Part shown: positions 41,727-57,513 of the stretch, piece after piece
Layout: each line of letters begins with the position of its first letter
Numbering within the stretch: the first letter of the stretch is position 1
Source of the DNA: Streptomyces sp. NBC_01197
GTDB taxonomy: Bacteria > Actinomycetota > Actinomycetes > Streptomycetales > Streptomycetaceae
Length of the DNA stretch: 64,000 bases
Direction: 5' to 3'
Assembly (NCBI RefSeq): GCF_036010505.1
Contig: NZ_CP108569.1
Coordinates: 2,606,001-2,670,000 of the forward strand
Notes under the pieces: model-generated
Told to the model about the DNA's origin: nothing
The model's input: only the letters and a program-made list of their open reading frames with translations
Database searches by the model: none
Translations under genes and position numbers: made by a program

Positions 41727-43060
<1,334 letters not shown>

Positions 43061-43064
<4 letters not shown>

Positions 43065-43636
43065 GGTGCCTCCCTGTCGTTCCCGGCTGTGGCACTGGCG
43101 GCTGTGGTGTCGTTCGGCATGGTGACGGTGCGGTGGACCGGGCCGAAGAGGTGGAAGCCCGGCAGCACGGACGGGACGGCGATGGTGGCGGTCGCGCTCA
43201 CGGTGTCGCCGCCGCGGATGCTGACGGTGGTGTCGCCCTGGAGCCAGCCGGACACGGCGTCCTGTCCGGCGGCGCGCCCCGTACCGGCCTCCAGGGCTTC
43301 GGTGCGGGCGGCGGCGCGGGCCGCCGTGCCTGCCTGGTTGGCGGTGTAGCCGACGATGCCGAGCTGGATGGCTGCCATGCCGATGAAGAGGAGGATCGGG
43401 AGCATCCCGGTGAATTCGAGGATGGCGGTGCCACGGTCGTCGCGGCGTCGGGTGCGGGTTTCCGGGGCTCCGCCTCCGGGCCCCCGGTCCTCAAGCGCCG
43501 GACAGGCTTGTTCTCGGCCAGCCCACGTCGACAAGATCCAGCCCGTCCTGGGGGTCCCCCCGGACGGAGTCTGGGGGAGTTCGAGGACCGGGGCCCGGGG
43601 CGGGGCCCCGTGGACGGTACGCCGCGCAGGCTTCAT
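43061..43636 (-). CDS. TadE-like minor pilin with repeat-derived N-terminus
   Basis: The 191-codon frame has the TadE motif RGTAILEFTGMLPILLFIG at about 70-88, then a helix and a beta-rich C-terminal domain. TadE proteins are minor pseudopilins. The ATG at 43636 overlaps the previous gene by ATGA, which supports it. Residues about 11-58 are encoded by a GC-rich inverted-repeat element (43470-43605) and look like no TadE; they include LPQTPSGGTPRTG from a 30-base sequence also present in the aldo/keto reductase gene. The normal protein would have a short N-terminus, so the pseudopilin leader is probably altered. Confidence 0.8.
43470..43605. mobile_element. MITE-like inverted-repeat element inside the TadE gene
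   Basis: The left arm (43471-43492, CGCCTCCGGGCCCCCGGTCC...) and right arm (43583-43604) are imperfect inverted repeats of about 22 bases. Between them is the 30-base sequence shared exactly with 16542-16571. The element has no gene of its own and keeps the host frame open. Mobility is inferred from the repeat structure; no target duplication was established. Confidence 0.6.
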
Positions 43637-45246
43637 CCCCCGCCTCCCCCCTCAAGCGCCGCCCCCGCGCTCCCGTCCACCGGCCACGGAAAGTTTCCGG
43701 CCCCCGGAAAGAGCACCGGCGTCCGCAGATGAACGGTCGCCTTCATCAGGTTTCCCGACGCGCCGCAGGACACCGTCGCCGCTCCGCGCCAGTTGGCCGG
43801 CAGCCGTTTCAGGCCCGCCTCCCGGCAGCCCGCCGTCGAACCGTCCACCGCGTACGAGGCCGTGGCCGCCCGCGCCGCCTCGTCCGCCGCGTTGCCCGCC
43901 AGGGAGAACGTGTAGCCCCACAGCACGCACTGCCACATCGCCACCAGGACGAAAGCGATCAGCGGGGCCATCCCGGCGAACTCGACCAGCACCGCGCCCC
44001 GGTCGCTGTCGAGCTTGCCGCCCCGGCCGCGCAGCCGGCCGCCCCGGCCGCCCCTGCCGTGGGCGGCTGCGGCCGGCGCCTTCACCAGCCCGAGCTCCCC
44101 GGCCAGGCCCCACATGGCCTGCTTGACCGCGGAGCGGCTGTCCAGGTCCTGCATCCGGCCCGCGTCCACCGCCGCCTGGAGTTCCTTGAACCCGGCCGGG
44201 ATCGCGGCACGGGCCGCCTTCGTACCGGTGATGCGCTCGACCAGCGCCGGCTGGATCTCGGCGCTCCGGGTGGCCCGGTTGACGACGGTGACCGTCTCCT
44301 CCGCTTTGCGGACCTGGAGCCGGTCCCACATCCGCACCATCCGCTTGGCGGCCCGGACGGCCACCACGTCGGGGGTGACCAACAGCAGCGCGTGGTCGGC
44401 CATTTCGACCGCCGCCGCGTTCGCGCCGGTCAGCTGGGTGCCGCAGTCCACGACCACGATCTCGTACCGGTTGCGCAGCGCGCCGATCGCCTGCCGGGCG
44501 ACCCGGTCGGTGACCTCTTCGCCCCGCTCGCCCTCGCCGGGTGCCAGCAGCAGCCCGAGCCCGGTCGGGTGCGCGTACACCGCGTCCTGGATGACCCGGG
44601 GGGAGATGTCGGCGATGCCCGCGAGGTCGGCGATGGAGCGGCGGAACTGTACGTCGAGGTAGGAGGCGACGTCACCGGACTGGAGGTCGAGGTCGACCAG
44701 GGCGACGGACCTGCCGGATGCCTGGGCCGCCAGCGCCAGCTGGACCGCGGTGACGGTGGCGCCGACCCCGCCCTTCGCCCCGGTGACCGTGACGACCGTG
44801 CCGCCGGGCCCGGCGGCCGGGTCGGGGCCGCCGCCGAGATGGCGGCGTACGCCGGTGGACCAGGAGGCCGCGTTCTGTACCCGGGCCGCCAGCTCCTCGT
44901 AGCCGAGCGGCAGTCCGATGAGGCCGCGGGCGCCCGCGTCCATCGCCGACGTGTAGAGGAGCGGGCTGATGTCCGCGGTGATGAGGACGACGCCGACCGC
45001 CGGGAAGCGCAGCGCGACCTCCCTGATCAGCTCAAGCGCGGGGGCCGGGCCGATCCGTTCGTGGACCAGGACGACCTCGGGCAGCTCGTCGAGCGATTCG
45101 GCGGCCAGCCGGGCGAGCAGGTCGAGCAGCGAGGTCGAGTCGGCGACCGGCGGGAAGGGTTCCGCGTCGGGGAGCTGGCTGAGCAGGGTGATCACCGCGC
45201 GCGCCGCGTCCGGGTCACCGGCCACGGGGAGGATACGAGTCGTCAT
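43633..45246 (-). CDS. CpaE-like ATPase fused to a TadE-like domain
   Basis: The 537-residue protein has three parts: a receiver-like N-terminal domain (about 1-130), a MinD/CpaE ATPase (about 140-375) and a C-terminal TadE domain (about 415-537), joined by a Gly/Arg linker. The ATPase has the deviant Walker motif TGAKGGVGATVTAV, keeping the first Lys but with Ala at the usual P-loop Lys. The TadE part starts RGAVLVEFAGMAPLIAFVL. CpaE localises the pilus machinery. Fusion with a minor pilin that must cross the membrane is odd and may reflect loss of a stop codon between two coupled genes. The ATG at 45246 follows GAGGGA. Confidence 0.85.
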   Translation of the reverse strand: MTTRILPVAGDPDAARAVITLLSQLPDAEPFPPVADSTSLLDLLARLAAESLDELPEVVLVHERIGPAPALELIREVALRFPAVGVVLITADISPLLYTSAMDAGARGLIGLPLGYEELAARVQNAASWSTGVRRHLGGGPDPAAGPGGTVVTVTGAKGGVGATVTAVQLALAAQASGRSVALVDLDLQSGDVASYLDVQFRRSIADLAGIADISPRVIQDAVYAHPTGLGLLLAPGEGERGEEVTDRVARQAIGALRNRYEIVVVDCGTQLTGANAAAVEMADHALLLVTPDVVAVRAAKRMVRMWDRLQVRKAEETVTVVNRATRSAEIQPALVERITGTKAARAAIPAGFKELQAAVDAGRMQDLDSRSAVKQAMWGLAGELGLVKAPAAAAHGRGGRGGRLRGRGGKLDSDRGAVLVEFAGMAPLIAFVLVAMWQCVLWGYTFSLAGNAADEAARAATASYAVDGSTAGCREAGLKRLPANWRGAATVSCGASGNLMKATVHLRTPVLFPGAGNFPWPVDGSAGAALEGGGGG

Positions 45247-45253
45247 CTGTCCC

Positions 45254-45967
45254 TCACTTGTCGCCGTCGAGGGTGTAGGTGCGGTCACGCTGCGGGACGG
45301 CCGGGCTGCCGCCTGCCGCGACGAGCGCCAGCCGGACATGGGTGGCGAAGGACTCCGCGTACGCCACGCGCTGGGCGTCGAGCGTCTTGAGTGCGAAGGT
45401 GATCGGGACGGCGTCGGTGGACTGCCGGGAGCGGTCGCTCTCGTTCTGGCCGGGATCGAGGGCGGTGAGCTTGCCGACGTCCACGACGCGCGCGTTGGAG
45501 ACGATGACCTTGGAGGTGTCGGGGACGCCCTTGTCGTCGCCCTTGAAGGTCGCGTAGATGTTGACCTCGGAGCCCGGTGTGATCTTGCCCGCCACCCCGG
45601 TGGAGGCGTCGATCATGATGGCGATCTCCTGCTCGCCCGCGCTGAGTTCGGGCTGCTGCACGATCATGTCGCTCTGCAGCAGCGAGCCCTTGCGCAGCTG
45701 GGTGACGGCGATCTTGCCGCGCACCTGGGCCAGGTCGGTCACCGCGTTGCCGGAGAGCCACCGCCGCGGCATCCGGGTCTCCTCGAAGTCGCCCGGGGTG
45801 AGCTGTTTGTACGGGGCTATGTCGCTCCGGACGCGGTACGCCGTGACCTCGGGGCCGACCTTCGCATTCACGTCGCGGATGACCGAGAGCACGCCGATGA
45901 TCGCGGCGACGGCGCAGACGGCCGACAGGACCAACAGGACGACGCCGCGGCGCTGGCGGGAGTTCAC
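45254..45967 (-). CDS. CpaB/RcpC-like Flp pilus assembly protein (SAF domain)
   Basis: The 237-residue protein has a basic N-terminus, one membrane segment (about 8-30) and an outer SAF domain (about 40-110; PEVTAYRVRSDIAPYKQLTPG) followed by a C-terminal RcpC-like domain. Family members stabilise the pilus channel and bind the cell wall. The GTG at 45967 overlaps the previous gene (GTGA) and gives MNSRQRRGVVLLVL; a longer reading to 46066 would run into the upstream gene. It lies 7 bases before the CpaE-like gene. Confidence 0.88.
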   Translation of the reverse strand: MNSRQRRGVVLLVLSAVCAVAAIIGVLSVIRDVNAKVGPEVTAYRVRSDIAPYKQLTPGDFEETRMPRRWLSGNAVTDLAQVRGKIAVTQLRKGSLLQSDMIVQQPELSAGEQEIAIMIDASTGVAGKITPGSEVNIYATFKGDDKGVPDTSKVIVSNARVVDVGKLTALDPGQNESDRSRQSTDAVPITFALKTLDAQRVAYAESFATHVRLALVAAGGSPAVPQRDRTYTLDGDK

Positions 45968-46821
45968 TGGGCGGGCAACCTCTCGATCTGGGCGTGCGGA
46001 TCGGCGAACGGTGCTGAGCAGAACCCGCAGCGGTCTCCTATGAGTTCGAGCCCGCACCACCGGCACAGTTCACGGCGTACGGAGGAGACCAGCCGGTGGA
46101 GGACGGAGAGCTCGGTGATGGCCGCGGCGAACTCCACCAGCCGGGGCGTGGCCCACCAGCCGGCCGAGTCGGCGGGCAGCGCGGTCTCCAGATGGCCCTG
46201 GACCCGCCAGGCGGGGGCGAGCACCGTGGTCACCCAGTCGGACTGGAGCCGGCCCCTGGCAACGAGCAGCCGGGTCGCGAACGACGGCCCTTCGAGCAGT
46301 CCGGGCTCGGCGCCGGTCACCTTGGCCAACTGCGGTGCGGGTGAGGCGAGTACGGCGAACTCGGAGCCCGGCAGCCACGATGTGGCGTGTGCGGTCAGGG
46401 AGACCGGTACGTGGTCGAGCCGTGTGACCGTGGGGAGCTGCGCGCCCGCGTAGATGTAGTGGGCGAGCAGCCGGGCCGCCGATGCGAGGACACCGGGGCT
46501 GAAGTCGCACACGGAGAGCTGGCGCAGCTGCCGGGCGAGCACCGCGACACCGAGCGGCGGCAGGTCGACGGGGAGCAGGGCGATGCGGTCGCTCTCCAGG
46601 ACCGAGCGGACGGCGTGCAGCCGCTGTACATACGGCGCGGGCAGCGCGGCCGCGTACGGCACGACGACGTATCCGTGCTGTTCGAGGAGAGCGTGGAGAT
46701 CCGCGATGGAGGCTTCGAGTGACTGCGCGGAGGGCGGCTGGAGTACGGCGGCGAGCGGGGTGTGCCGGTCGGACGGCGGCAGCGCGAGGTCGCCGCTGGT
46801 GACAGCTATGGCGGTCGGCAC
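45964..46821 (-). CDS. Unknown protein with C-terminal zinc ribbon, first gene of the tad operon
   Basis: I do not recognise this 285-residue protein. It is soluble, Ala/Leu-rich, and ends in a zinc ribbon-like CRWCGLELIGDRCGFC (about 254-269). There is no signal peptide or membrane segment. The GTG at 46821 follows GGGGG. It is coupled to the cpaB-like gene by a GTGA overlap, so its product is likely a cytoplasmic factor for pilus assembly or its regulation; the exact role is unknown. Confidence 0.7.
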   Translation of the reverse strand: MPTAIAVTSGDLALPPSDRHTPLAAVLQPPSAQSLEASIADLHALLEQHGYVVVPYAAALPAPYVQRLHAVRSVLESDRIALLPVDLPPLGVAVLARQLRQLSVCDFSPGVLASAARLLAHYIYAGAQLPTVTRLDHVPVSLTAHATSWLPGSEFAVLASPAPQLAKVTGAEPGLLEGPSFATRLLVARGRLQSDWVTTVLAPAWRVQGHLETALPADSAGWWATPRLVEFAAAITELSVLHRLVSSVRRELCRWCGLELIGDRCGFCSAPFADPHAQIERLPAQ

Positions 46822-48986: not shown

Positions 48987-49814
48987 CTACGGCTTGGGCA
49001 GGGCGCAGCCCGAGCGGCTCAGGTCGATCTTGTTGCCGGTGCCGACGCACGGCACGATCCCGTACGTCTCCTCGGCGTAGTTGATGCCCTGGTGGATGGT
49101 GACGTTGCCGTTCTCGTCCACCTCGCACGGGTTGTTCTCTGTGCAGCGCTCGCCGTCCTCATTGCCCGTGTTGTTGACGGCGACGACTTTGCCGGTCGCG
49201 GTGTCGACCACCGGCGATCCCGAGGTGCCGCCGATGGTGTTGCAGGCCGAGGTGTAGCGGAGCGAGTCCTTCCAGGTCCAGTCGCCCTCCTTGAGGCGGT
49301 AGACGAAACCGTCCACGCTGCAGCTGTAGATCTTCTTCCAGTACCCGGAGACCACGCTGATCGCCGTCCCCTGTACGGGGTGGGCGGCGTTGAGCTCAAG
49401 CGCCGAGATGCCGTACTTGCTCTGTATCTGCGCGTACGTGGAGGTGAGCTGGTACAGCGAGATGTCCGTGTCGGTCATCGTCGCGTACGCCACCTTGCTC
49501 GCCCTGAGCGTGGCGACCGAGCGGCCGGCCGCGTTGAGCAGCGAGAAGCTACGGCTTGACGGCTGATCGGTGATGACCTGGCCGGCGGCCGGGAAGCCGG
49601 TCTCCAGGCAGTGGCCGTTGGAGAGCACCAGCGCGGGATCGCCAGGCTGGGAGTCCGGCACGCGGACGACGGAGCCCGAGCAGTTGCTCAGCGCCACCGT
49701 GCCCGCGAAGTCGGCCGCTTTGACCGTGGGACGGCTGGTGGCCGCCACCGCGGGTGTCGCTGCCGCGCCCATAAGGAAAAGAGCGAGCAGAGCGCCGACG
49801 AGAGGCTTCTTCAT
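48987..49814 (-). CDS. Secreted trypsin-like serine protease
   Basis: The 275-residue protein has a signal peptide (about 1-25) and an S1-type fold with the triad His68 (LSNGHCLE), Asp117 (TDTDISLYQL) and Ser198 (GGTSGSPVVD). Three or more disulfides are likely. The Ser block TSGSP differs from the usual DSGGP but is seen in extracellular proteases of Streptomyces. The ATG at 49814 gives MKKPLVGALLALFLM. It has its own promoter and no coupled neighbours. Confidence 0.88.
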   Translation of the reverse strand: MKKPLVGALLALFLMGAAATPAVAATSRPTVKAADFAGTVALSNCSGSVVRVPDSQPGDPALVLSNGHCLETGFPAAGQVITDQPSSRSFSLLNAAGRSVATLRASKVAYATMTDTDISLYQLTSTYAQIQSKYGISALELNAAHPVQGTAISVVSGYWKKIYSCSVDGFVYRLKEGDWTWKDSLRYTSACNTIGGTSGSPVVDTATGKVVAVNNTGNEDGERCTENNPCEVDENGNVTIHQGINYAEETYGIVPCVGTGNKIDLSRSGCALPKP

Positions 49815-50286
49815 GTGGGGGGTCCCCTCTGTGACCGAAGTTCTTCCGGTTTGTCATGCGCATTCTTAACGCAAGAGGGGGCCGCGGGGAAGGGTGCCCC
49901 GCCCGGGGGCACCGGGGGCCACCGCCGCCTCACCTGGGCCATGAGCATCTCCAGTGAACCTGCACACCGACTGCGCAGTCCGGTCACGGCGTCCCGAGAA
50001 CACGCACAACCCGCGGAATTGACGTTGTCCATTAATGCGGGAGTGTCCACTTTGGTGAAATGCGCAGCGCCCCGGGTAATGCGAACCTTTGGATCCCGTG
50101 AAGGGGCTGTCCCGGCTTGGTGAACAGACCTGCACTCCGCCGCAATTTCGTGACCACACAGCCCCTGAACGGGGACCTTCCGAGTGGATGTGCGAGGCGT
50201 CATCGTGCTTTGATCCTCCGCACTGCGGGAGTTGCACCACTGGTTCCCGCTTTCTCGAATTACCCCTGAGAAAGGCCGCTCACATC
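49815..50286 (+). promoter_or_regulatory. Upstream region of the double-glycine peptide gene
   Basis: No gene is supported in these 472 bases. The part from about 50010 to 50290 is AT-richer than its surroundings and should hold the peptide promoter; TTGACG (50019-50024) is a -35 candidate but no matching -10 is clear. GAGAAAGG at 50271-50278 is the peptide's ribosome site. Confidence 0.5.
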
Positions 50287-50514
50287 ATGAACTCCGTCCC
50301 CCAGGTTCAGACCCTTGAGATCTCCGACGCCGACCTCGACAACGTCTCCGGCGGTCTCGTCGGTGGCCTCGTCAACAGCGTGACCGGCACGGCCGACTCC
50401 ATCGCCCCGGTCTCGGGCCTCGTCGGCGGCGTCGTCGGCACGGTCTCCGGTCTGACGGGTGTCAACACGGGCGCCGTCACCGGCACCGTGACCGGCCTCA
50501 TCGCCGGCGCCTGA
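50287..50514 (+). CDS. Double-glycine leader peptide precursor (bacteriocin-like, NHLP-exported)
   Basis: The 75-residue precursor has a leader MNSVPQVQTLEISDADLDNV followed by SGG, a classic double-glycine cleavage site at residues 22-23. The 52-residue core is made of Gly, Val, Thr, Ser, Leu and Ala with almost no charge, no Cys and no aromatics (LVGGLVNSVTGTADSIAPVS ...). Without Cys it cannot form lanthionines, although such peptides are sometimes labelled type A2 lantipeptides. The C39-type exporter encoded downstream should cleave and export it. No modification enzyme is adjacent. The ATG at 50287 follows GAGAAAGG. Function, whether antimicrobial, signal or structural, is unknown. Confidence 0.85.
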   Translation: MNSVPQVQTLEISDADLDNVSGGLVGGLVNSVTGTADSIAPVSGLVGGVVGTVSGLTGVNTGAVTGTVTGLIAGA

Positions 50515-50531
50515 GCCACAGCTCCACACGG

Positions 50532-50560
50532 GCCCCGGAACCTCCCCCCGGTTCCGGGGC
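50532..50560 (+). terminator. Hairpin between peptide gene and export operon
   Basis: GCCCCGGAACC (50532-50542) pairs with GGTTCCGGGGC (50550-50560) over 11 bases. It lies between precursor and exporter genes, so it may let only part of the transcription pass and keep peptide expression in excess. Confidence 0.85.
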
Positions 50561-50636
50561 TCGACGGCGCTCCAGGCCGTGTGCGCGAAGCCGCGCCCGT
50601 CGGCCCGCCGGCTCCGCAACGTTAGGGAAGAACGTC

Positions 50637-51443
50637 GTGCAGTTCCGCCAACAGGCCCTGTCCAAGCTGCAGTCGCCCGAGGAACTCGACCTTCCCGTGC
50701 GGCTCGCCCGACCGCAGGGGCTGCTCGCCCTGGTGGTGACGGTCGTCGTGATGGCCGCCGCGTCCGTGTGGGCGGTGACCGGCTCGGTCTCGTCGACGCT
50801 GCGGGCACCCGGCATCCTGACGCACGCGCAGGGCAGTTACGTCCTCCAGAGCCCCGTCACCGGTCAGGTCACCGGCGTGCTCGCCAGGCAAGGGCAGCGC
50901 CTGGCCGTCGGCGCACCGGTCCTCAAGGTCCGTACATCACAGGGCGACCGGCTCGTCCGCGCCATCGACGCGGGCCGGGTCACCACGCTCTCGGCCGGGA
51001 TCGGCACCGTCGTCACCACCGGCGCCGATGTCGCCACGGTGGAGAAGACCCACAGCGCCACAGATCCCCTGCTCGCCATGGTGTACGTCCGGGCGGACAG
51101 CGCGGGGACCGTACCGGTCGGCGCGGACGTCGATCTCACCGTCCAGTCGGCGCCGTCCCAGCAGTACGGGATGCTGCGCGGACGCGTACAGGCGGTGGGG
51201 CACGGCGCGCAGACCCAGCAGCAGATAGCGGGCTTCCTCGGCGACAAACAGCTGGCCGGGCAGTTCACGAAAGGCGGCCCGACGGTCGCGGTCCTGGTGA
51301 AGCTGGTCAAGTCCGCCGCCACCCGGTCGGGTTACGCCTGGTCGTCAGCGGGCGGCCCGCCGTACGCGCTCGACTCCATGACCCCGGCCTCCGGCGCCGT
51401 GCACCTCGCCGGGCAGCACCCGATCGATTGGCTGCTTCCGTGA
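50637..51443 (+). CDS. HlyD-like membrane fusion/adaptor protein
   Basis: The 268-residue protein has one membrane segment (about 30-52) and an outer part with a biotinyl-lipoyl-like hairpin (SPVTGQVTGVLARQGQRLAVG and the matching VTTLSAGIGTVVTTGADV). NHLP-type exporters in actinobacteria carry such a short adaptor in place of the long HlyD of Gram-negatives. The GTG at 50637 follows AGGGAAG. Its stop overlaps the next gene by GTGA, making a tight three-gene export unit. Confidence 0.83.
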   Translation: MQFRQQALSKLQSPEELDLPVRLARPQGLLALVVTVVVMAAASVWAVTGSVSSTLRAPGILTHAQGSYVLQSPVTGQVTGVLARQGQRLAVGAPVLKVRTSQGDRLVRAIDAGRVTTLSAGIGTVVTTGADVATVEKTHSATDPLLAMVYVRADSAGTVPVGADVDLTVQSAPSQQYGMLRGRVQAVGHGAQTQQQIAGFLGDKQLAGQFTKGGPTVAVLVKLVKSAATRSGYAWSSAGGPPYALDSMTPASGAVHLAGQHPIDWLLP

Positions 51444-53680
51444 GCCCCTCCCCCGCCACCCAGCAGCAGCTGCCACCGGCCGGCCACGGCCGCCGCAAGG
51501 TACGTCCCGCGCCCGCGCCCCGGATGCGCAGGCGGACCGTCCGCACGCCCACCGTCCTCCAGATGGAGGCCGTCGAGTGCGGCGCCGCGTCCCTGGCCAT
51601 GGTCCTCGCCCACCACGGCCGCCACGTCCCCCTCGAAGAGCTCCGCATCGCCTGCGGCGTCTCGCGCGACGGCTCGCGGGCCAGCAGCCTCCTGAAGGCG
51701 GCGCGCAGTTACGGCCTGACCGCCAGGGGCATGCAGATGGAGCCGGCCGCCCTCGCCGAGGTCAAGGCGCCCGCGATCCTCTTCTGGGAGTTCAACCACT
51801 ACGTCGTCTACGACGGCATGGGCCGGCGCTTCGGGCGGCGCGGCATGCACATCAACGACCCGGACAAGGGCCGCAGGTTCGTGCCCGCCGAGGACTTCGA
51901 CACCAGTTTCACCGGCGTCGTCCTCGTCCTCGAACCGGGCGAAGGCTTCCGCCAGGGCGGCCGCAGGCCGGGCGTCCTGAGGGCGCTGCCCGCACGTCTG
52001 CGCGGCACCACGGGCACGATGCTCGCCGCGCTCCTCGCCAGCCTGCTCCTGGTCGCGACCGGCGCGGCGCTGCCCGCGCTCAGCCGCACGTACATCGACA
52101 TGTTCCTGCTCGGCCATCAGACGTCGCTCCTGGGGGCTCTGTTCGCCTCGATGGCGACGATGGTGGCGCTCACCGCCGTCCTCACCTGGCTCCAGCAGGC
52201 GAACCTGCTGCACGGGCGCATCATCGCGTCGACGCTCAGCAGCGCACGCTTCCTGGGCCATCTGCTGCGGCTCCCGGTGACGTTCTTCGCCCAGCGCAGC
52301 CCGGCCGACCTGGTGCAGCGCCTCCAGTCGAACGACGCGGTCGCCGAGACCCTCGCACGCGATCTGACCGCCGCCGGGGTCGACGGTGTGGTGGTGCTGC
52401 TGTACGCGGCGCTGCTGTGGACGTACGACCCGCAGCTGACGCTCGTCGGCGTGGGCATCGCGCTCGGGAACGTCATCGCGATGCGGATCGTGATCCGGCT
52501 GCGCGCCACGCGTACACAGAAGCTGCGCGCGGACACGGCCCGGCTCACCAACACCTCGTACACGGGCCTTCAGCTGATCGAGACGATGAAGGCGACGGGT
52601 GGCGAGAACGGCTACTTCCGGCGCTGGGCCGGTCAGCACGCCACCACCCTTGAGGAGCAGCAGCGTCTCGGGGTGCCGAGCGCGTGGCTGGGCATCGTGG
52701 CACCGACCCTGGCGACGCTGAACAGCGCGCTGATCCTGTGGATCGGAGGTCTGCGCGCGGTCGAGGGGCATCTGTCGGTGGGGCTGCTGGTGGCGTTCCA
52801 GGCGCTCGTGGTGCGTTTCACCGCGCCGGTCACCCGCCTCAACGGGGTCGCGGGCCGCATCCAGGACTTCGCCGCCGACGTGACGCGGCTGAAGGACGTC
52901 GAGAGCTTCCCCGTGGACTCCCTGTACGCCCGCTCCGAAACGGCGCCGAGCACCCGCCGTCTGAAGGGGCACGTCACGCTGGACGACATCACGTTCGGCT
53001 ACAGCCCGCTGGACAAGCCGCTCCTGACGGGCTTCTCGCTGACCGTAGGACCGGGGCAGCAGGTCGCCCTCGTCGGCGGCTCCGGCAGCGGCAAGTCGAC
53101 GGTGTCGCGGCTGATCTCCGGTCTGTACAGCCCGTGGGAGGGCACGATCCGGATCGACGGACAGCGTCTGGAGGACATCCCGCGGGGCGCGCTGACGGCG
53201 TCCGTGTCGTTCGTCGACCAGGACGTGTTCCTCTTCGAGGGCACGGTCCGTGACAACGTCGCCCTGTGGGATCCGTCGATCCCGGACGAGGCGGTCGTCG
53301 ACGCGCTCAAGGACGCGGCGCTGTACGACGTGGTGGCGCGCAGGCCCGGCTCCATCCAGGGCCGGGTCGAGCAGGACGGACGGAACTTCTCCGGCGGGCA
53401 GCGCCAGCGGCTCGAAATCGCCCGGGCCCTGGTCCGGCGGCCGAGCGTCCTCGTACTCGACGAGGTGACCAGCGCCCTGGACGCCGAGACCGAGCAGCTC
53501 ATCATCGACAATCTGCGGCGCCGCGGCTGTGCCTGCGTGGTGATCGCGCACCGCCTCAGCACGGTCCGCGACAGCGACGAGATCGTGGTACTCGACCACG
53601 GCCAGGTCGTGGAGCGCGGCCGCCACGAGGAGCTGGCCGCCGCCGGGGGCCCGTACGCCGAACTGGTCAGGGAGCACTGA
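51440..53680 (+). CDS. NHLP-family peptide exporter with C39 peptidase (peptidase/permease/ATPase)
   Basis: The 746-residue protein has an N-terminal C39 peptidase (about 30-165) with Cys47 in MEAVECGAASLAMVL, His120 in FNHYVVYDG and Asp140 in INDPDKG, six membrane segments (about 185-450) and an ATPase domain with Walker A GGSGSGKST, signature FSGGQRQRLEIA and Walker B VLVLDEVTSALD. It should cut leaders after Gly-Gly and export the core. The GTG at 51440 overlaps the adaptor gene. It is followed by a second exporter after one base. Confidence 0.93.
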   Translation: MSPSPATQQQLPPAGHGRRKVRPAPAPRMRRRTVRTPTVLQMEAVECGAASLAMVLAHHGRHVPLEELRIACGVSRDGSRASSLLKAARSYGLTARGMQMEPAALAEVKAPAILFWEFNHYVVYDGMGRRFGRRGMHINDPDKGRRFVPAEDFDTSFTGVVLVLEPGEGFRQGGRRPGVLRALPARLRGTTGTMLAALLASLLLVATGAALPALSRTYIDMFLLGHQTSLLGALFASMATMVALTAVLTWLQQANLLHGRIIASTLSSARFLGHLLRLPVTFFAQRSPADLVQRLQSNDAVAETLARDLTAAGVDGVVVLLYAALLWTYDPQLTLVGVGIALGNVIAMRIVIRLRATRTQKLRADTARLTNTSYTGLQLIETMKATGGENGYFRRWAGQHATTLEEQQRLGVPSAWLGIVAPTLATLNSALILWIGGLRAVEGHLSVGLLVAFQALVVRFTAPVTRLNGVAGRIQDFAADVTRLKDVESFPVDSLYARSETAPSTRRLKGHVTLDDITFGYSPLDKPLLTGFSLTVGPGQQVALVGGSGSGKSTVSRLISGLYSPWEGTIRIDGQRLEDIPRGALTASVSFVDQDVFLFEGTVRDNVALWDPSIPDEAVVDALKDAALYDVVARRPGSIQGRVEQDGRNFSGGQRQRLEIARALVRRPSVLVLDEVTSALDAETEQLIIDNLRRRGCACVVIAHRLSTVRDSDEIVVLDHGQVVERGRHEELAAAGGPYAELVREH

Positions 53681-53681
53681 C

Positions 53682-56537
53682 GTGACGCACCCGCACCAGG
53701 AGCACACCCCGGGCGACCAGGTGACCGCCGCGTTCGGCGCGCTGGGCGCCCCGGTGGACTGCGCCGGCGTGCGCAGCCTCCCGCTGGAGGGGCCGCAGGT
53801 CCTGTGGCTCGTCGTCGGGGGCGCGCTCGACCTGTTCGCGGTGGACACCGTCGCGCAGGGGCACTGGCACTTCCTGGGCCGGCTCGAAGCGGGGACGCTG
53901 CTGCTCGGGCCGGTCGAGGGCCCGCAGCACACGCTGGTGGGGCGGCCGTTGCAGGGCTGCGCACTGCGCCGTATCGCGCTGCGGGAACTGCAGGTCCCCG
54001 ACCACGGCGACGGCTCGTGGGCGTACGACCAGCAGTACCTCAGCCAGTACGACACCCAGGACTCGGCCCTGAGCCTTCTGGAACACGCCTTCGCGCTGGG
54101 CGTGGGCCGCAGTCAGCGGGTGCTGTTCGAGGCTCCGCTCGACGGCAGGACCGCGGGCGACGACTCGGTGGGCGACGACGACATCCTGTGGCTGCCGGTC
54201 ATGCCGGGCAGTGTCCAGTACGGGGCGTCGTACAGCGCGGACGCGGCCGGCGACCTGCTGGTCGACGGGTCTATGTGGCAGCGCATGGTCAACCAGCAGT
54301 TCCGGCTGCTCTCGGCACTCGACCGGTGGATCGAGCGCCTGGAGAGTGCGCACGAGACCCGTACGGCGGCCGGTATCAAGGCGGGCGAGACCGTACGCGA
54401 GAACGCCGACCGGACTCTTCTCGCGTCCATCGGCAGCCCGGGCAGGGGGAGTTCACGGCGAACGTCCGCCGGTTACGGTGACGACGCGACGTATGCCGCG
54501 TGCAAGCTGGTCGCCGACGCGGCCGGGATCACACTCACCGAACTCGCCCGGATCGGCGCCGTGAGCGACCGGATCGACCCGGTCGAGCAGATCGCGGTCG
54601 CCTCGCGGATCCGCAGCCGGGCCGTCCGCCTCGACGGCCGCTGGTGGCGCGAGAACACCGGCCCCCTGGTGGGGCACCGGGCCGCGTCCGGCGCCCCGGT
54701 CGCGCTGCTCTGGCGGCGTGGTGGTTACGAGGCCGTGCATCCGTCCAGCGGACGGCCCACCCGGATCGACGAGGACAACGCCGACGAGTTCGAACCGCGG
54801 GCCGTGATGCTGTACCGGCCGCTGCCCGACCGGCCGCTCAGCCCGCTGCGGCTGCTGCGGTTCAGTGCGCGCGGCACCCGCGGCGACGTTCGGAACCTGC
54901 TGGGCGCGGGCCTGGTGACGGTCGCGATCGGCGCCCTGGTGCCGGTCGCGACCGGGCGGGTGCTCGGCGAGTACGTGCCGAACGCCGAGTCGGACCTGAT
55001 CGTCCAGGTGTCCGTCGCGGTGATGGTGACGAGCATCGTATCGGCGGCATTCATGCTGTTGCAGAACCTGACGATCCTGCGGATGGAGGGCCGGATCGAG
55101 GGCGCGCTGCAACCGGCCGTGTGGGACCGGCTGCTGCGGCTGCCCACCCGCTTCTTCGCCTCGCGCTCCACGGGCGAGCTGGCCAGCGCGGCGATGGGCA
55201 TCAGCTCGATCCGCCGGCTCCTGTCGGGCGTGGGCCCTGTGGTGGTGCAGGCGGGCACGGTCGGCGCGCTGAACCTCGTCCTGCTGCTCTGCTACAGCGT
55301 GCCACTCGCCCTGGCCGCCCTCGGGATGCTGGCGGTGATCGCGGCCGTCTTCCTCGCCCTCGGGCTGTGGGAACTGCGCTGGCAGCGGCGCCTCGTGGTA
55401 CTCAGCAACAAGCTCAACAACCAGGCGTTCCAGACGCTGCGCGGACTGCCGAAGCTGCGCGTCGCGGGCGCGGAGAGCTTCGCGTACGCCGCGTGGGCCG
55501 GGGAGTTCGCGCGCAGCCGGGAGCTGCAGCGGCGCGCGGGACGGGTCAAGAACCTCACCACGGTGCTCAACTCCGTCTATCTGCCGTTGTGTTCCCTGGT
55601 GATGTTCATGCTGCTCGCGGGCCCGGCGCGGGGCAGCATGTCGGCGGGTGACTTCCTCACGTTCAGCACCGCGGTGACGATGCTGCTCACCGCGGTCACG
55701 CAGCTCACCGGCGCGGCGCTGTCGGCGGCGGCGGTCCTTCCGATGTTCGAGCAGATCAAGCCGGTACTCGACGAGGCGCCCGAAGTGCGCGCCGCCAGCA
55801 CCCAGCCCGGCGCCCTGACGGGCGAGATCGAGGCGCGCGGGGTGTCCTTCCGGTACACGGACGACGGCCCGCTCGTCCTGGACGATGTGTCGCTGTCCGT
55901 CCGGCCCGGCGAGTTCGTGGCGGTCGTCGGCCCGAGCGGCTGCGGCAAGTCGACGCTGCTGCGTCTGCTCATCGGCTTCGACCGGCCGGTCACGGGCGGT
56001 GTGCTGTACGACGGCCAGGACCTCACGGCGCTCGACCAGGCGGCGGTGCGCCGGCAGTGCGGGGTGGTGCTGCAGAACGCGCAGCCGCTGACCGGTTCGA
56101 TCCTGGACTGCATCTGCGGCGCGGAGGTGTTCACGCAGGAGGAGGCGTGGGAGGCAGCGGCGATGGCGGGCCTGGCCGATGACATCAAGCAGATGCCGAT
56201 GGGACTGCACACGATGATCGCCGGGGGCGGCGCGATCTCGGGCGGGCAGCGGCAGCGCCTCATGATCGCGCAGGCGCTGATCCGGCGCCCCCGCATCCTC
56301 TTCTTCGACGAGGCCACGAGCGCGCTCGACAACGAGACCCAGCGCACCGTCATCGACAGCACGCGCGCACTGAACGCGACCCGCATCGTCATCGCGCACC
56401 GCCTGTCGACGGTCATGGACGCGGACCGGGTCGTGGTCATGGCGGACGGCCGCATCGTCCAGCAGGGCCCCCCGGCCCGACTCCTCGCGGACACGGCCGG
56501 CCGGCTGCACGAACTGGTGCGGCGACAGATGGCGTAG
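53682..56537 (+). CDS. NHLP-family peptide exporter, permease/ATPase subunit without active peptidase
   Basis: The 951-residue protein has a long soluble N-terminal region (about 1-390), ABC membrane segments (about 405-690) and an ATPase domain with Walker A GPSGCGKST, signature ISGGQRQRLMIA and Walker B ILFFDEATSALD. The N-terminal part contains a cyclic-nucleotide-like fold early on and then a degenerate peptidase-like region with no Cys/His pair. It should pair with the C39 exporter as a heterodimer. The GTG at 53682 is separated by one base from the previous stop. Confidence 0.92.
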   Translation: MTHPHQEHTPGDQVTAAFGALGAPVDCAGVRSLPLEGPQVLWLVVGGALDLFAVDTVAQGHWHFLGRLEAGTLLLGPVEGPQHTLVGRPLQGCALRRIALRELQVPDHGDGSWAYDQQYLSQYDTQDSALSLLEHAFALGVGRSQRVLFEAPLDGRTAGDDSVGDDDILWLPVMPGSVQYGASYSADAAGDLLVDGSMWQRMVNQQFRLLSALDRWIERLESAHETRTAAGIKAGETVRENADRTLLASIGSPGRGSSRRTSAGYGDDATYAACKLVADAAGITLTELARIGAVSDRIDPVEQIAVASRIRSRAVRLDGRWWRENTGPLVGHRAASGAPVALLWRRGGYEAVHPSSGRPTRIDEDNADEFEPRAVMLYRPLPDRPLSPLRLLRFSARGTRGDVRNLLGAGLVTVAIGALVPVATGRVLGEYVPNAESDLIVQVSVAVMVTSIVSAAFMLLQNLTILRMEGRIEGALQPAVWDRLLRLPTRFFASRSTGELASAAMGISSIRRLLSGVGPVVVQAGTVGALNLVLLLCYSVPLALAALGMLAVIAAVFLALGLWELRWQRRLVVLSNKLNNQAFQTLRGLPKLRVAGAESFAYAAWAGEFARSRELQRRAGRVKNLTTVLNSVYLPLCSLVMFMLLAGPARGSMSAGDFLTFSTAVTMLLTAVTQLTGAALSAAAVLPMFEQIKPVLDEAPEVRAASTQPGALTGEIEARGVSFRYTDDGPLVLDDVSLSVRPGEFVAVVGPSGCGKSTLLRLLIGFDRPVTGGVLYDGQDLTALDQAAVRRQCGVVLQNAQPLTGSILDCICGAEVFTQEEAWEAAAMAGLADDIKQMPMGLHTMIAGGGAISGGQRQRLMIAQALIRRPRILFFDEATSALDNETQRTVIDSTRALNATRIVIAHRLSTVMDADRVVVMADGRIVQQGPPARLLADTAGRLHELVRRQMA

Positions 56538-56563
56538 CCCCCGGCCGGGACTGCGCCCCGGCA

Positions 56564-56590
56564 CCTGGGGCCACACGGTCGCGCCCCAGG
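56564..56590 (+). terminator. Terminator of the exporter operon
   Basis: CCTGGGGC (56564-56571) pairs with GCCCCAGG (56583-56590), 26 bases after the exporter stop. Confidence 0.65.
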
Positions 56591-56639
56591 GCCGTAACAC
56601 GCGCTCGCCGCCATCCCCGCCGAGAAATGCCCCGACACG

Positions 56640-56816
56640 GTGGACGCCCTCACCATGGTCATCGCCGACCGCCATGTCAGCAGCGTGGTCGTGACCTCGG
56701 GCGTACGCGACCTCGTGGCCTACCGGGACGCCCTGCCCGGGGCGGAACGGAGTATCCGCGTCCTCCCTGTCTCGGGCCTCGCGGAGTTCATGTCCGGCAA
56801 GCGCGTCACCTTGTGA
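56640..56816 (+). pseudogene. Short unidentified reading frame, probable gene remnant
   Basis: From a GTG at 56640, 58 codons run to the TGA at 56814, including MVIADRHVSSVVVTSG and LPVSGLAEFMSGKRVTL. Third positions are strongly G/C, so it looks coding, but the product is short with no recognisable ribosome site and a TAA 45 bases upstream. I do not recognise the family. It is probably the 3' end of a lost gene. Confidence 0.4.
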
Positions 56817-56910
56817 TCCGCCTGCGGTCGGCCGTGGCCGCCCACCGCTGCGTTCCCCGCCCCGAAACCCCGGCAGCGGTCACCGAACACGTTGCCGGGG
56901 CGCCGCGGTG

Positions 56911-57348
56911 TCACCCGGTGTGCACCTCGGTCGACGGCCAGTCGCCGTCGGCGAACTCGCGGCCCCAGTAGTACGGGTTGACCTCGGCGAGCGTACGCGC
57001 CTGCCAGCCGCCCGGGTCGCCGGGAGCGGGGACCGCCAACTCGACGCCGGGACCCCACAGGGCGAGCCGCTCCTGACAGATCCCGCACGGCGCCAGAACG
57101 GCGAGCCTGCCCGCGATCCGGTTGACGCACACCGACGCCGTGACCTTCCGGTCCAGGGTGTACGCCTGGCAGTACGCCCCGACCTCATGGCAGAGCGTCA
57201 CACCCGCGTTGAGGTTGTCGAAGCAGACACTGGTGAGGATCCGGCCGTCGTCCAGGTAGACGGCTGCCGCCCCGGCGTCCTCGCGCCCCGGCCAGCGGCG
57301 GTCCATCTGCGCGATCGCGGCGTCCACGAGTGCCTGGTCGAGTTTCAT
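56911..57348 (-). CDS. Cytidine deaminase-like zinc enzyme
   Basis: The 145-residue protein has the deaminase zinc site: CHE (Cys53, His54, Glu55) in VTLCHEVGAYCQA and PCGIC (Cys88, Cys91) in LAPCGICQERL. The central His in place of the usual Ala in CAE is a small difference. It could deaminate cytidine or a related nucleoside, or a nucleoside antibiotic as blasticidin S deaminases do. The ATG at 57348 gives MKLDQALVDAAIAQM, the usual N-terminus. A longer frame upstream is remnant sequence. Confidence 0.85.
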   Translation of the reverse strand: MKLDQALVDAAIAQMDRRWPGREDAGAAAVYLDDGRILTSVCFDNLNAGVTLCHEVGAYCQAYTLDRKVTASVCVNRIAGRLAVLAPCGICQERLALWGPGVELAVPAPGDPGGWQARTLAEVNPYYWGREFADGDWPSTEVHTG

Positions 57349-57425
57349 CGTGGCATCCTGCCAGGCCCACGCGGCGATCCAGAAGGGATTTTCCGCAGCG
57401 GCGGACCGGACGGTCTCGGTCACCG

Positions 57426-57461
57426 GGCTGAGCAGCGCGGTGACCACGAAGCCCGCCACCG
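57426..57461. repeat. Stray copy of the gntP 3' end
   Basis: These 36 bases match 57795-57830 at 34 positions. On the minus strand they encode TVAGFVVTALLS, next to SVAGFVVAAVLS at the true gntP C-terminus. A partial duplication of the gene end is the simplest reading. Confidence 0.6.
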
Positions 57462-57513
57462 TTCCCCTGCTGCCGAAGGGGTGCGCCGTCGGTGGCGATT
57501 CCCCCATCGAGCT

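What the first reader, a model, noticed from the sequence alone, without database searches (positions are those of the whole stretch)
50287..56537. Cys-free double-glycine peptide with its own twin NHLP exporter and no modification enzyme
Seen: a 75-residue precursor with leader ...LEISDADLDNV-SGG and a 52-residue core of Gly/Val/Thr/Ser/Ala/Leu, followed by a HlyD-like adaptor, a C39 peptidase exporter with Cys47/His120/Asp140, and a second ABC exporter with a degenerate peptidase-like part. Known: NHLP exporters usually serve RiPPs made with LanM, nitrile hydratase-like or other enzymes. None is present here and the core has no Cys, so it is either an unmodified bacteriocin or an exported hydrophobic peptide with a new role, for example pore-forming, surface-active or developmental.
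Basis: partly seen in the sequence, partly recalled or inferred. Interest (0 to 1): 0.78.

Follow-up and report, generated by a model that had tools for sequence, protein, structure and literature searches.

The report
Cys-free exported Streptomyces peptide cassette
A four-gene cassette in Streptomyces makes and exports a small hydrophobic peptide without any enzyme to modify it, and in related genomes scattered genes for other small peptides carry the same export tag and the same promoter sequence, which suggests a shared, little-studied set of secreted peptides rather than an ordinary antibiotic.

Summary
At 50287-56537 lie a 75-aa double-glycine precursor with a 52-aa Cys-free core, a HlyD-like adaptor, a C39 peptidase-exporter (C47/H120/D140) and a second exporter. 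The second exporter begins with a fold resembling a cyclic-nucleotide-binding domain (weak model); only about residues 267-389 may be a degenerate C39 part. The cassette is not new: by gene order and description it matches S. coelicolor SCO0753-SCO0756, published as a Cys-free hydrophobic peptide with exporter, strongly induced by the Sco5282/5283 two-component system (PMC6629963). RefSeq's name 'type A2 lantipeptide' is not supported: no Cys, no LanM above cut-off in this genome, no LanM association across 246 genomes. No neighbouring gene beyond the four is shared by all 100 loci compared. What I did not find in print: in related genomes, unlinked peptide genes with different cores share this leader and promoter element (35 of 40 with at most one mismatch; 0 of 1524 control windows), and all 38 genomes in which two searches placed them have the exporter. 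I read this as a leader- and promoter-tagged regulon of exported peptides, most likely acting at the hyphal surface. That function is inferred. This genome itself shows only the cassette peptide.

The parts
50098..50135 (+). conserved upstream element, operator-like: GTGAAG (50098-50103) ... TGCAC (50131-50135)
   Evidence: GTGAAG is present within 330 nt upstream in 124 of 130 cassette loci (no shuffle made there); alignment of a subset; letters checked. In unlinked peptide genes only 18 of 40 have it, against 175 of 1524 control windows. Operator role is inference.
50182..50216 (+). conserved core promoter: GAGTGG (usually GATTGG) exactly 24 nt before TGCTTTGATCC (50206-50216)
   Evidence: exact TGCTTTGATCC in 111 of 130 loci, the looser TG[ACG]TT[AGT][ACG]ATC in 124 of 130; spacing 24 in 98 of 98 loci where both parts were found. 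Promoter role is inference.
50270..50275 (+). conserved ribosome-binding-site-like GAAAGG
   Evidence: alignment; letters
50287..50514 (+). precursor peptide gene, 75 aa: 23-aa double-glycine leader, 52-aa Cys-free core (GRAVY 1.1, 4595 Da, pI 4.05)
   Evidence: 298 homologues, most named 'type A2 lantipeptide' where a RefSeq name is shown
50532..50560 (+). hairpin between precursor and exporter genes, no U-tract; possibly a partial terminator or mRNA-stabilising stem
   Evidence: perfect stem of 9 bp or more in this gap in 100 of 130 loci against 5 of 650 single-base shuffles; fold z = -2.48; not recognised by the terminator scan
50637..51443 (+). HlyD-like adaptor, 268 aa
   Evidence: TIGR03794 131.3 bits, below the cut-off of 156.2; PF13437 above cut-off
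51440..53680 (+). exporter 1: C39 peptidase (nt about 51545-51940) + permease + ATPase, 746 aa
   Evidence: TIGR03796 1007.9 bits; PF03412 119.4 bits; residues 37-742 match the solved 'ABC-type bacteriocin transporter' 4ry2, E 7.5e-93
53682..56537 (+). exporter 2: permease + ATPase, 951 aa
   Evidence: TIGR03797 896.9 bits; Walker A at residue 750, ABC signature at 853
53739..53981 (+). exporter 2, residues ~20-100: cyclic-nucleotide-binding-like beta roll
   Evidence: model (10-residue mean pLDDT 54-81 here), Foldseek hits to CRP/CprK; weak
54480..54848 (+). exporter 2, residues ~267-389: possible degenerate C39-like part without the Cys/His/Asp triad
   Evidence: start of the TIGR03797 match; residues read by eye; no Pfam C39 match

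Best explanation
The cassette makes an unmodified, Cys-free, hydrophobic and slightly acidic peptide. The leader directs the precursor to the exporter pair with its HlyD-like adaptor; the C39 domain of exporter 1 cuts after Gly23 while the 52-residue core is exported. A conserved promoter and upstream element switch it on, in S. coelicolor under the OmpR-type system Sco5282/5283; a hairpin after the peptide gene keeps exporter expression below peptide expression. In relatives the same leader and promoter mark further unlinked peptide genes, so the exporter serves a set of peptides. The peptides most likely act outside the cell at the hyphal surface or in its matrix (wetting, aggregation, envelope protection), not as classical antibiotics. 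Shown by sequence: gene content, conservation, missing enzymes of the kinds searched, shared leader and promoter. Shown in print for S. coelicolor: induction of SCO0753-0756. Inferred: cleavage site, export in trans, surface role. Likelihoods: unmodified by a cassette-specific enzyme 0.85; leader-and-promoter regulon 0.75; surface or matrix role 0.5.
For: Cassette integrity: hlyD in 130 of 130 loci and all three transport genes in 100 of 100 loci longer than 10 kb; one Cys-free precursor at 74-321 nt before hlyD in 130 of 130. In 9 exporter loci where the single-sequence search (E<=1e-3) had found no precursor, a divergent Cys-free one sits in the same place. Co-occurrence in 246 genus genomes: precursor 158, exporter 181, both 156; of the two precursor genomes without exporter 2, G152 is a cassette cut by a contig end and G058 shows no leader ORF. 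No enzyme. Contrast: distant NHLP exporters sit beside YcaO and nitroreductase genes in L132 and L135; L133 and L134 show a YcaO-like ORF by eye, L136 and L137 long-leader precursors by eye. Core: 195 unique cores, 0 with Cys, Lys, Trp or Met; net charge negative in 192; identity at i+4 0.252 against 0.144 expected. Regulon: 40 unlinked peptide genes, 35 with TGCTTTGATC at <=1 mismatch (21 exact) within 330 nt upstream, 0 of 1524 control windows. With the four further genes (L170, L171 twice, L172) this is 36 of 44. Genome-wide in 6 genomes 14 of 17 exact TGCTTTGATCC sites lie 51-141 nt before leader-tagged peptide genes, cassette or unlinked. All 38 genomes in which searches placed unlinked members have the exporter (hypergeometric p = 2.7e-6, ignoring kinship). 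Regulation: log2 change 6.3 for SCO0753 and 4.25-4.4 for SCO0754-0756 with the activated kinase, whose strain grows dispersed (PMC6629963, passages); SCO5283 is listed as OmpR-type in PMC9739842 (passage).
Against: No experiment shows the mature peptide, its cleavage or its place. The core changes faster than the leader: pN/pS about 0.90 against 0.43 among 20 75-aa loci and 0.55 against 0.27 among 40 71-aa loci, which also fits an arms race. AlphaFold gives no confident fold for the precursor (pLDDT 56.8), and helical periodicity is weak for this core alone (p about 0.05 at 110 degrees, uncorrected for 13 angles). The unlinked genes may have kept promoter and leader only because they arose by recent duplication. 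The GTGAAG element is found in only 18 of 40 of them (control 175 of 1524). Cys occurs in 25 of 26 members with recognised leader of one unlinked family and in 10 of 98 of the other, so not all members need be unmodified. This genome has no unlinked member that I could find. Three of 17 exact promoter sites are not at peptide genes. Dispersed growth is correlated with, not shown to be caused by, SCO0753.
Confidence: 0.5

Rival explanations
1. Unmodified bacteriocin working like a class II microcin: the hydrophobic core inserts into membranes of competitors.
For: Double-glycine leader, C39 exporter and adaptor; fast-changing core; several different cores under one leader in relatives; small-residue i+4 pattern.
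Against: No immunity-like extra gene is shared by all of 100 loci (genes of 70 aa or more within about 10 kb; ORFs of 30 aa or more within 1 kb), though clade-specific or exporter-based immunity is not excluded; cores carry no Lys and are negatively charged in 192 of 195; a similar peptide in 158 of 246 genus genomes leaves fewer susceptible kin; regulation with envelope genes (PMC6629963).
Confidence: 0.25
2. RiPP modified in trans by an enzyme encoded elsewhere, for example a class III LanKC or another dehydratase acting on Ser/Thr.
For: Core rich in Thr and Ser; a LanC-like domain (81 bits, below cut-off) exists in this genome; RefSeq calls the family type A2 lantipeptide.
Against: No Cys in any of 195 unique cores; LanM not associated; no YcaO in this genome; no neighbouring gene shared by all of 100 loci. 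Class III enzymes and others were not searched.
Confidence: 0.12
3. Secreted signal: the core is sensed by neighbours of the same species.
For: Dedicated processing exporter as for ComC-type peptides (recalled); strong regulation (PMC6629963).
Against: No receptor gene shared by all loci beside the cassette; core sequence drifts while its composition stays; genus-wide similarity would give little strain specificity.
Confidence: 0.1

Closest known systems
SCO0753-SCO0756 of Streptomyces coelicolor (PMC6629963; passages seen)
   Same: Same order: Cys-free hydrophobic peptide, HlyD homologue, two ABC transporter components; described there as conserved in many Streptomyces with the same organisation. 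77 aa there fits the 71-aa orthologues plus six residues (for example P0096).
   Different: The window's core is 52 aa instead of 48, and downstream neighbours differ (exopolyphosphatase SCO0757 in S. coelicolor; a gene that looks like it by eye in 45 of 100 loci). I did not have the S. coelicolor record itself, so the equation rests on order, length and description.
NHLP/NHLM export systems (PMC2887384; passages seen)
   Same: Exporter proteins of TIGR03796 and TIGR03797 type and a HlyD-like adaptor.
   Different: No nitrile-hydratase- or Nif11-type leader (no NCBIfam match for the precursor), short 23-aa leader, no TOMM or LanM enzyme.
EbfG1-4 / PteB of Synechococcus elongatus (PMC4997328, PMC9981879; passages seen)
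   Same: Small double-glycine proteins that need a C39 exporter and serve biofilm formation; some form amyloid.
   Different: Other phylum, a cluster of four peptides; no homology tested or claimed; effect there is aggregation, whereas here high expression goes with dispersed growth.
Class II microcins and lactococcal-type unmodified bacteriocins (recalled)
   Same: Leader, C39 exporter, adaptor, Gly-rich hydrophobic core.
   Different: No shared immunity gene found, negative cores, presence in most genus genomes sampled.
SapB (RamS) of Streptomyces (recalled, and mentioned in PMC6629963)
   Same: Possible surface role of a small exported peptide.
   Different: SapB is lanthionine-containing (recalled); this core has no Cys.

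Membership tests
SCO0753-0756-type cassette | Cys-free double-glycine precursor followed by hlyD, C39 exporter and second exporter | tested here: met
NHLP/NHLM export system | exporter 1 above the TIGR03796 cut-off | tested here: met
   1007.9 against 853.3 bits
NHLP/NHLM export system | exporter 2 above the TIGR03797 cut-off | tested here: met
   896.9 against 709.4 bits
NHLP/NHLM export system | adaptor above the TIGR03794 cut-off | tested here: not met
   131.3 against 156.2 bits
NHLP/NHLM export system | precursor with nitrile-hydratase-like or Nif11-like leader | tested here: not met
   0 NCBIfam families for the precursor at E<=0.1
Lanthipeptide (RefSeq 'type A2 lantipeptide') | Cys in the core | tested here: not met
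   0 of 195 unique cores
Lanthipeptide (RefSeq 'type A2 lantipeptide') | LanM in the genome | tested here: not met
   only an 81-bit LanC-like match, below the cut-off of 304
TOMM | YcaO cyclodehydratase | tested here: not met
   0 YcaO in the genome at E<=1e-5
Unmodified class II bacteriocin | double-glycine leader plus C39 exporter | tested here: met
Unmodified class II bacteriocin | dedicated immunity gene | tested here: inconclusive
   no gene shared by all of 100 loci, but 79 of these loci come from one search round the S. coelicolor-type peptide, and clade-specific immunity genes would not show
Unmodified class II bacteriocin | kills related bacteria | not testable with these tools
   needs assay
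EbfG/PteB-like matrix peptides (works like) | exported peptide changes aggregation or surface | not testable with these tools
   only correlation with dispersed growth in PMC6629963

The most novel reading that the evidence does not exclude
Streptomyces runs a genus-wide secreted-peptide regulon built on a repurposed NHLP exporter: one cassette, one leader, one promoter signature, and a changing set of unlinked peptide genes with different cores that are exported in trans to remodel the hyphal surface under envelope stress.
Probability: 0.4. Interest if true: 0.75.

Novelty: new variant of a known kind. Interest (0 to 1): 0.52.

Why it matters
The family is widespread in Streptomyces and annotated as a lantibiotic, which the sequence contradicts. 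If the regulon is real, an 11-base promoter signature plus a 23-residue leader lets one list secreted peptides of unknown role across the genus, and gives a direct handle on how a two-component system changes pellet form, a matter of practical weight in fermentation. It would also move double-glycine export further from 'antibiotic' as the default reading, as EbfG did in cyanobacteria.

Tried and rejected
Lanthipeptide reading: rejected as the filed name (no Cys, no LanM). NHLP/TOMM reading: rejected as membership.

Internal two-fold repeat of the core: suspected by eye; lag analysis shows identity above 1.5 times expectation only at lags 4 and 32 (of 2-33), so I do not claim it.

Beta/amyloid core: hydrophobic power peaks near 110 degrees, not 160-180, and the precursor model is helical but unreliable; amyloid is not excluded.

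Structure of exporter 2's N-terminal part: low confidence, used only for the first domain.

Sigma-70 and terminator scans of 49900-50700 found nothing; no Rfam match in 49700-57500.

The second exact TGCTTTGATCC in this genome lies near a transposase-like remnant, not a peptide gene (by eye). Three of the six exact sites in G049 are not at peptide genes.

Flank clusters: besides the cassette, the commonest cluster is in 83 of 100 loci (181 genes of a broad family merged by single linkage; 4 of the 21 loci not; not in the window), then an exopolyphosphatase-like one in 45. ORFs below 70 aa were not called there; one search looked at ORFs of 30 aa or more within 1 kb and found clusters in up to 82 loci, the ten largest all mainly of the set (at most 3 of the other 21), none of these ten in the window.

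My first count of promoter elements in unlinked genes used too strict a leader rule; one search replaces it (42 loci that are not cassettes, 2 without a recognised ORF: L183, L217; their genomes G228 and G239 are still among the 38). In one search a strict rule missed precursors that one search then found. Rows dropped: L035, L041, L049 and L050 from the core statistics; 29 short loci and L010 from the three-gene count (ends cut). The exporter count of 181 includes at least two weak matches (G057, G188) not inspected. Of 25 exporter genomes without a precursor hit I inspected 9. For pN/pS of the 71-aa group I used the first 40 loci, without L083. The handles counted were typed from the match lists.

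Not in print: searches listed no paper that I could see describing unlinked genes sharing leader and promoter; only the open-licence library was searched, and most listed papers were not opened.
Full report
Observation. The precursor has 75 residues and ends its leader in SGG at 21-23; the core of 52 residues is Gly/Val/Thr/Leu/Ala-rich, without Cys. The HlyD protein starts with GTG at 50637; exporter 1 overlaps it by 4 nt and exporter 2 follows after 1 nt. The NHLP export models score exporters 1 and 2 well above cut-off and the HlyD protein below it; the precursor matches no NCBIfam or Pfam family at E<=0.1. Exporter 1 carries C47, H120 and D140 in the expected surroundings (the motif meaning is recalled) and matches over 37-742 a solved 'ABC-type bacteriocin transporter', 4ry2. 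Exporter 2 has no recognised C39 domain; its first ~100 residues look like a cyclic-nucleotide-binding fold in a weak model.

Identity. Homologues are mostly called 'type A2 lantipeptide' where a RefSeq name is shown (298 at E<=0.01 among 349 candidates, best 120 listed). Order, length and description match SCO0753-SCO0756. In PMC6629963 (passages seen) SCO0753 is the most overexpressed gene in a strain with an activated Sco5282 kinase, almost silent with its exporter genes in the null mutant, hydrophobic, without cysteines, and conserved with its three transport genes in many Streptomyces. PMC5733086 reports SCO0753 up in an aor1 mutant (passage); PMC5882110 reports sco0756 up in a mutant lacking Ppm1 activity (passage); PMC6414726 lists SCO0756 as 'bacteriocin biosynthesis', slightly down (passage). 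So the cassette itself is known, its function not.

Conservation. Among 246 genomes sampled from the genus, the precursor is found in 158 (E<=1e-3), exporter 2's N-terminal part in 181 (E<=1e-10), both in 156. The two exceptions are a cassette cut by a contig end (G152) and a match without a recognisable leader (G058). Of the 25 genomes with exporter but no precursor hit I inspected 9, and all 9 have a divergent Cys-free precursor in front of hlyD; six further loci of the class-wide sample, all of the window's genus, do as well. In a class-wide sample exporter 2 is found in 37 of 394 genomes: 33 of the own genus and 4 of one other family with weak matches. Three weak matches in the own genus (G499, G608, G523) and one in the other family (G529) sit in another kind of locus: YcaO and nitroreductase beside the exporter were confirmed for G499 and G529 (L132, L135), while for G608 and G523 (L133, L134) I only saw a YcaO-like ORF by eye. 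Two more loci of that family (L136, L137) have long-leader precursors of NHLP appearance (by eye).

No enzyme. In 130 loci hlyD is always present; all 100 loci longer than 10 kb have all three transport genes. 79 of these 100 come from one search centred on the S. coelicolor-type peptide, so their flanks are related. Clustering of flanking genes shows none beyond the cassette in all loci; the commonest is in 83 of 100, a broad family merged by single linkage and absent from the window. A second look at ORFs of 30 aa or more within 1 kb found none shared beyond that clade (the ten largest clusters reach at most 3 of the other 21 loci). Ten ORFs flanking the window's cassette include no RiPP enzyme. 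This genome has no YcaO and no LanM above cut-off. LanM presence is not tied to the exporter (44 of 181 against 23 of 65, p = 0.10). Class III synthetases and radical SAM enzymes were not searched.

The peptide. Of 251 collected sequences (4 dropped) the 195 unique cores contain no Cys, Lys, Trp or Met; 7 have Arg, 6 Phe or Tyr and 20 His; net charge is negative in 192. Identity at spacing 4 is 0.252 against 0.144 expected, and hydrophobic periodicity peaks near 110 degrees, both pointing to helices with small residues every fourth position, but weakly for this core alone. The core varies more than the leader.

Control region. The 330 nt upstream are strikingly conserved: TGCTTTGATCC exact in 111 of 130 loci, a GATTGG-like element exactly 24 nt before it in 98 of 98 where both were found, and GTGAAG further up in 124 of 130. 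Between precursor and hlyD a perfect stem of 9 bp or more exists in 100 of 130 loci against 5 of 650 shuffles. The published fold changes, higher for the peptide gene than for the exporter genes, agree with partial termination or differential stability there; this is inference.

Unlinked peptides. Matches of the precursor beyond the cassette in six genomes (11 places) proved in 10 cases to be small genes with this leader and other cores; the eleventh was not recognised by my leader rule, though it matched another unlinked peptide over its length at E 5.9e-9 (G009). In the ten regions fetched (nine of 18 kb, one of 11.8 kb) only one ABC ATPase match to the cassette proteins was found, 27% identical and far from the peptide, and ten neighbouring genes from five of the regions gave no RiPP enzyme. 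Two such families have 107 and 28 homologues at E<=0.01. Fetching more members, 42 loci were not cassettes; in 40 an ORF was recognised, and 35 of 40 have TGCTTTGATC with at most one mismatch within 330 nt upstream (21 exact), against 0 of 1524 control windows from the same loci. Six of the ten genes are among these 40; the other four add one one-mismatch site and three without, 36 of 44 in all. GTGAAG is less shared: 18 of 40 against 175 of 1524. Genome-wide in six genomes, 14 of 17 exact TGCTTTGATCC sites lie 51-141 nt before a leader-tagged peptide gene, cassette or unlinked; the six genomes were chosen because they have such genes, so this measures specificity of the site, not prevalence. 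All 38 genomes in which searches placed these families have the exporter, p = 2.7e-6 before any correction for kinship (two of the 38, G228 and G239, had no ORF recognised by my rule); 10 of the 38 have LanM. The window's own genome shows none: one search finds no second leader peptide at E<=10, and the only other exact site is elsewhere.

Mechanism. I take the leader as the export tag, the C39 domain as the processing enzyme, the paired exporter and adaptor as the channel, and the promoter as the common switch. A dedicated peptide plus a changing set of tagged peptides, a hydrophobic non-cationic core, no shared immunity gene, and control by a system whose activation changes pellet form argue for work at the cell surface. 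The cyanobacterial EbfG/PteB pair shows that double-glycine export can serve biofilm (PMC4997328, PMC9981879, passages). The bacteriocin reading stays open, mostly because of the fast-changing cores.

Verdict. The finding is sound but its object was already known as SCO0753-0756. The addition is the evidence against the lantibiotic name and for a leader-and-promoter regulon, which I did not find in the literature searched.

Noticed in passing
window 41727-46066 (-): Genes for a Tad/Flp-type pilus (T2SSE ATPase, ParA/TadE-like, RcpC/CpaB) lie upstream of the cassette.
   Followed up: no
window 48987-49814 (-): A secreted-looking trypsin-like protease is divergent from the cassette. A secreted protease SCO0752 is named in PMC6295645 (passage); whether it is the counterpart was not tested.
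   Followed up: partly
L132, L133, L134, L135: NHLP-type exporters near YcaO (and, where scanned, nitroreductase): TOMM-like clusters in three Streptomyces genomes and one of another family; enzymes confirmed by Pfam only for L132 and L135.
   Followed up: partly
L204-L227: Several unlinked peptide families share an ending like SPEGVALGVHAH in their cores and often one Cys; the meaning is unknown.
   Followed up: no
L171 (8726-8962 and 9359-9601): Two leader peptides in tandem with very Gly/Ser-rich cores and a different upstream sequence.
   Followed up: no
window 50287-50514 and homologues: RefSeq names this Cys-free family 'type A2 lantipeptide', and at least one paper (PMC13047742, passages) draws antimicrobial conclusions from that name for a peptide of its own strain; whether that peptide belongs to this family was not tested.
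   Followed up: partly
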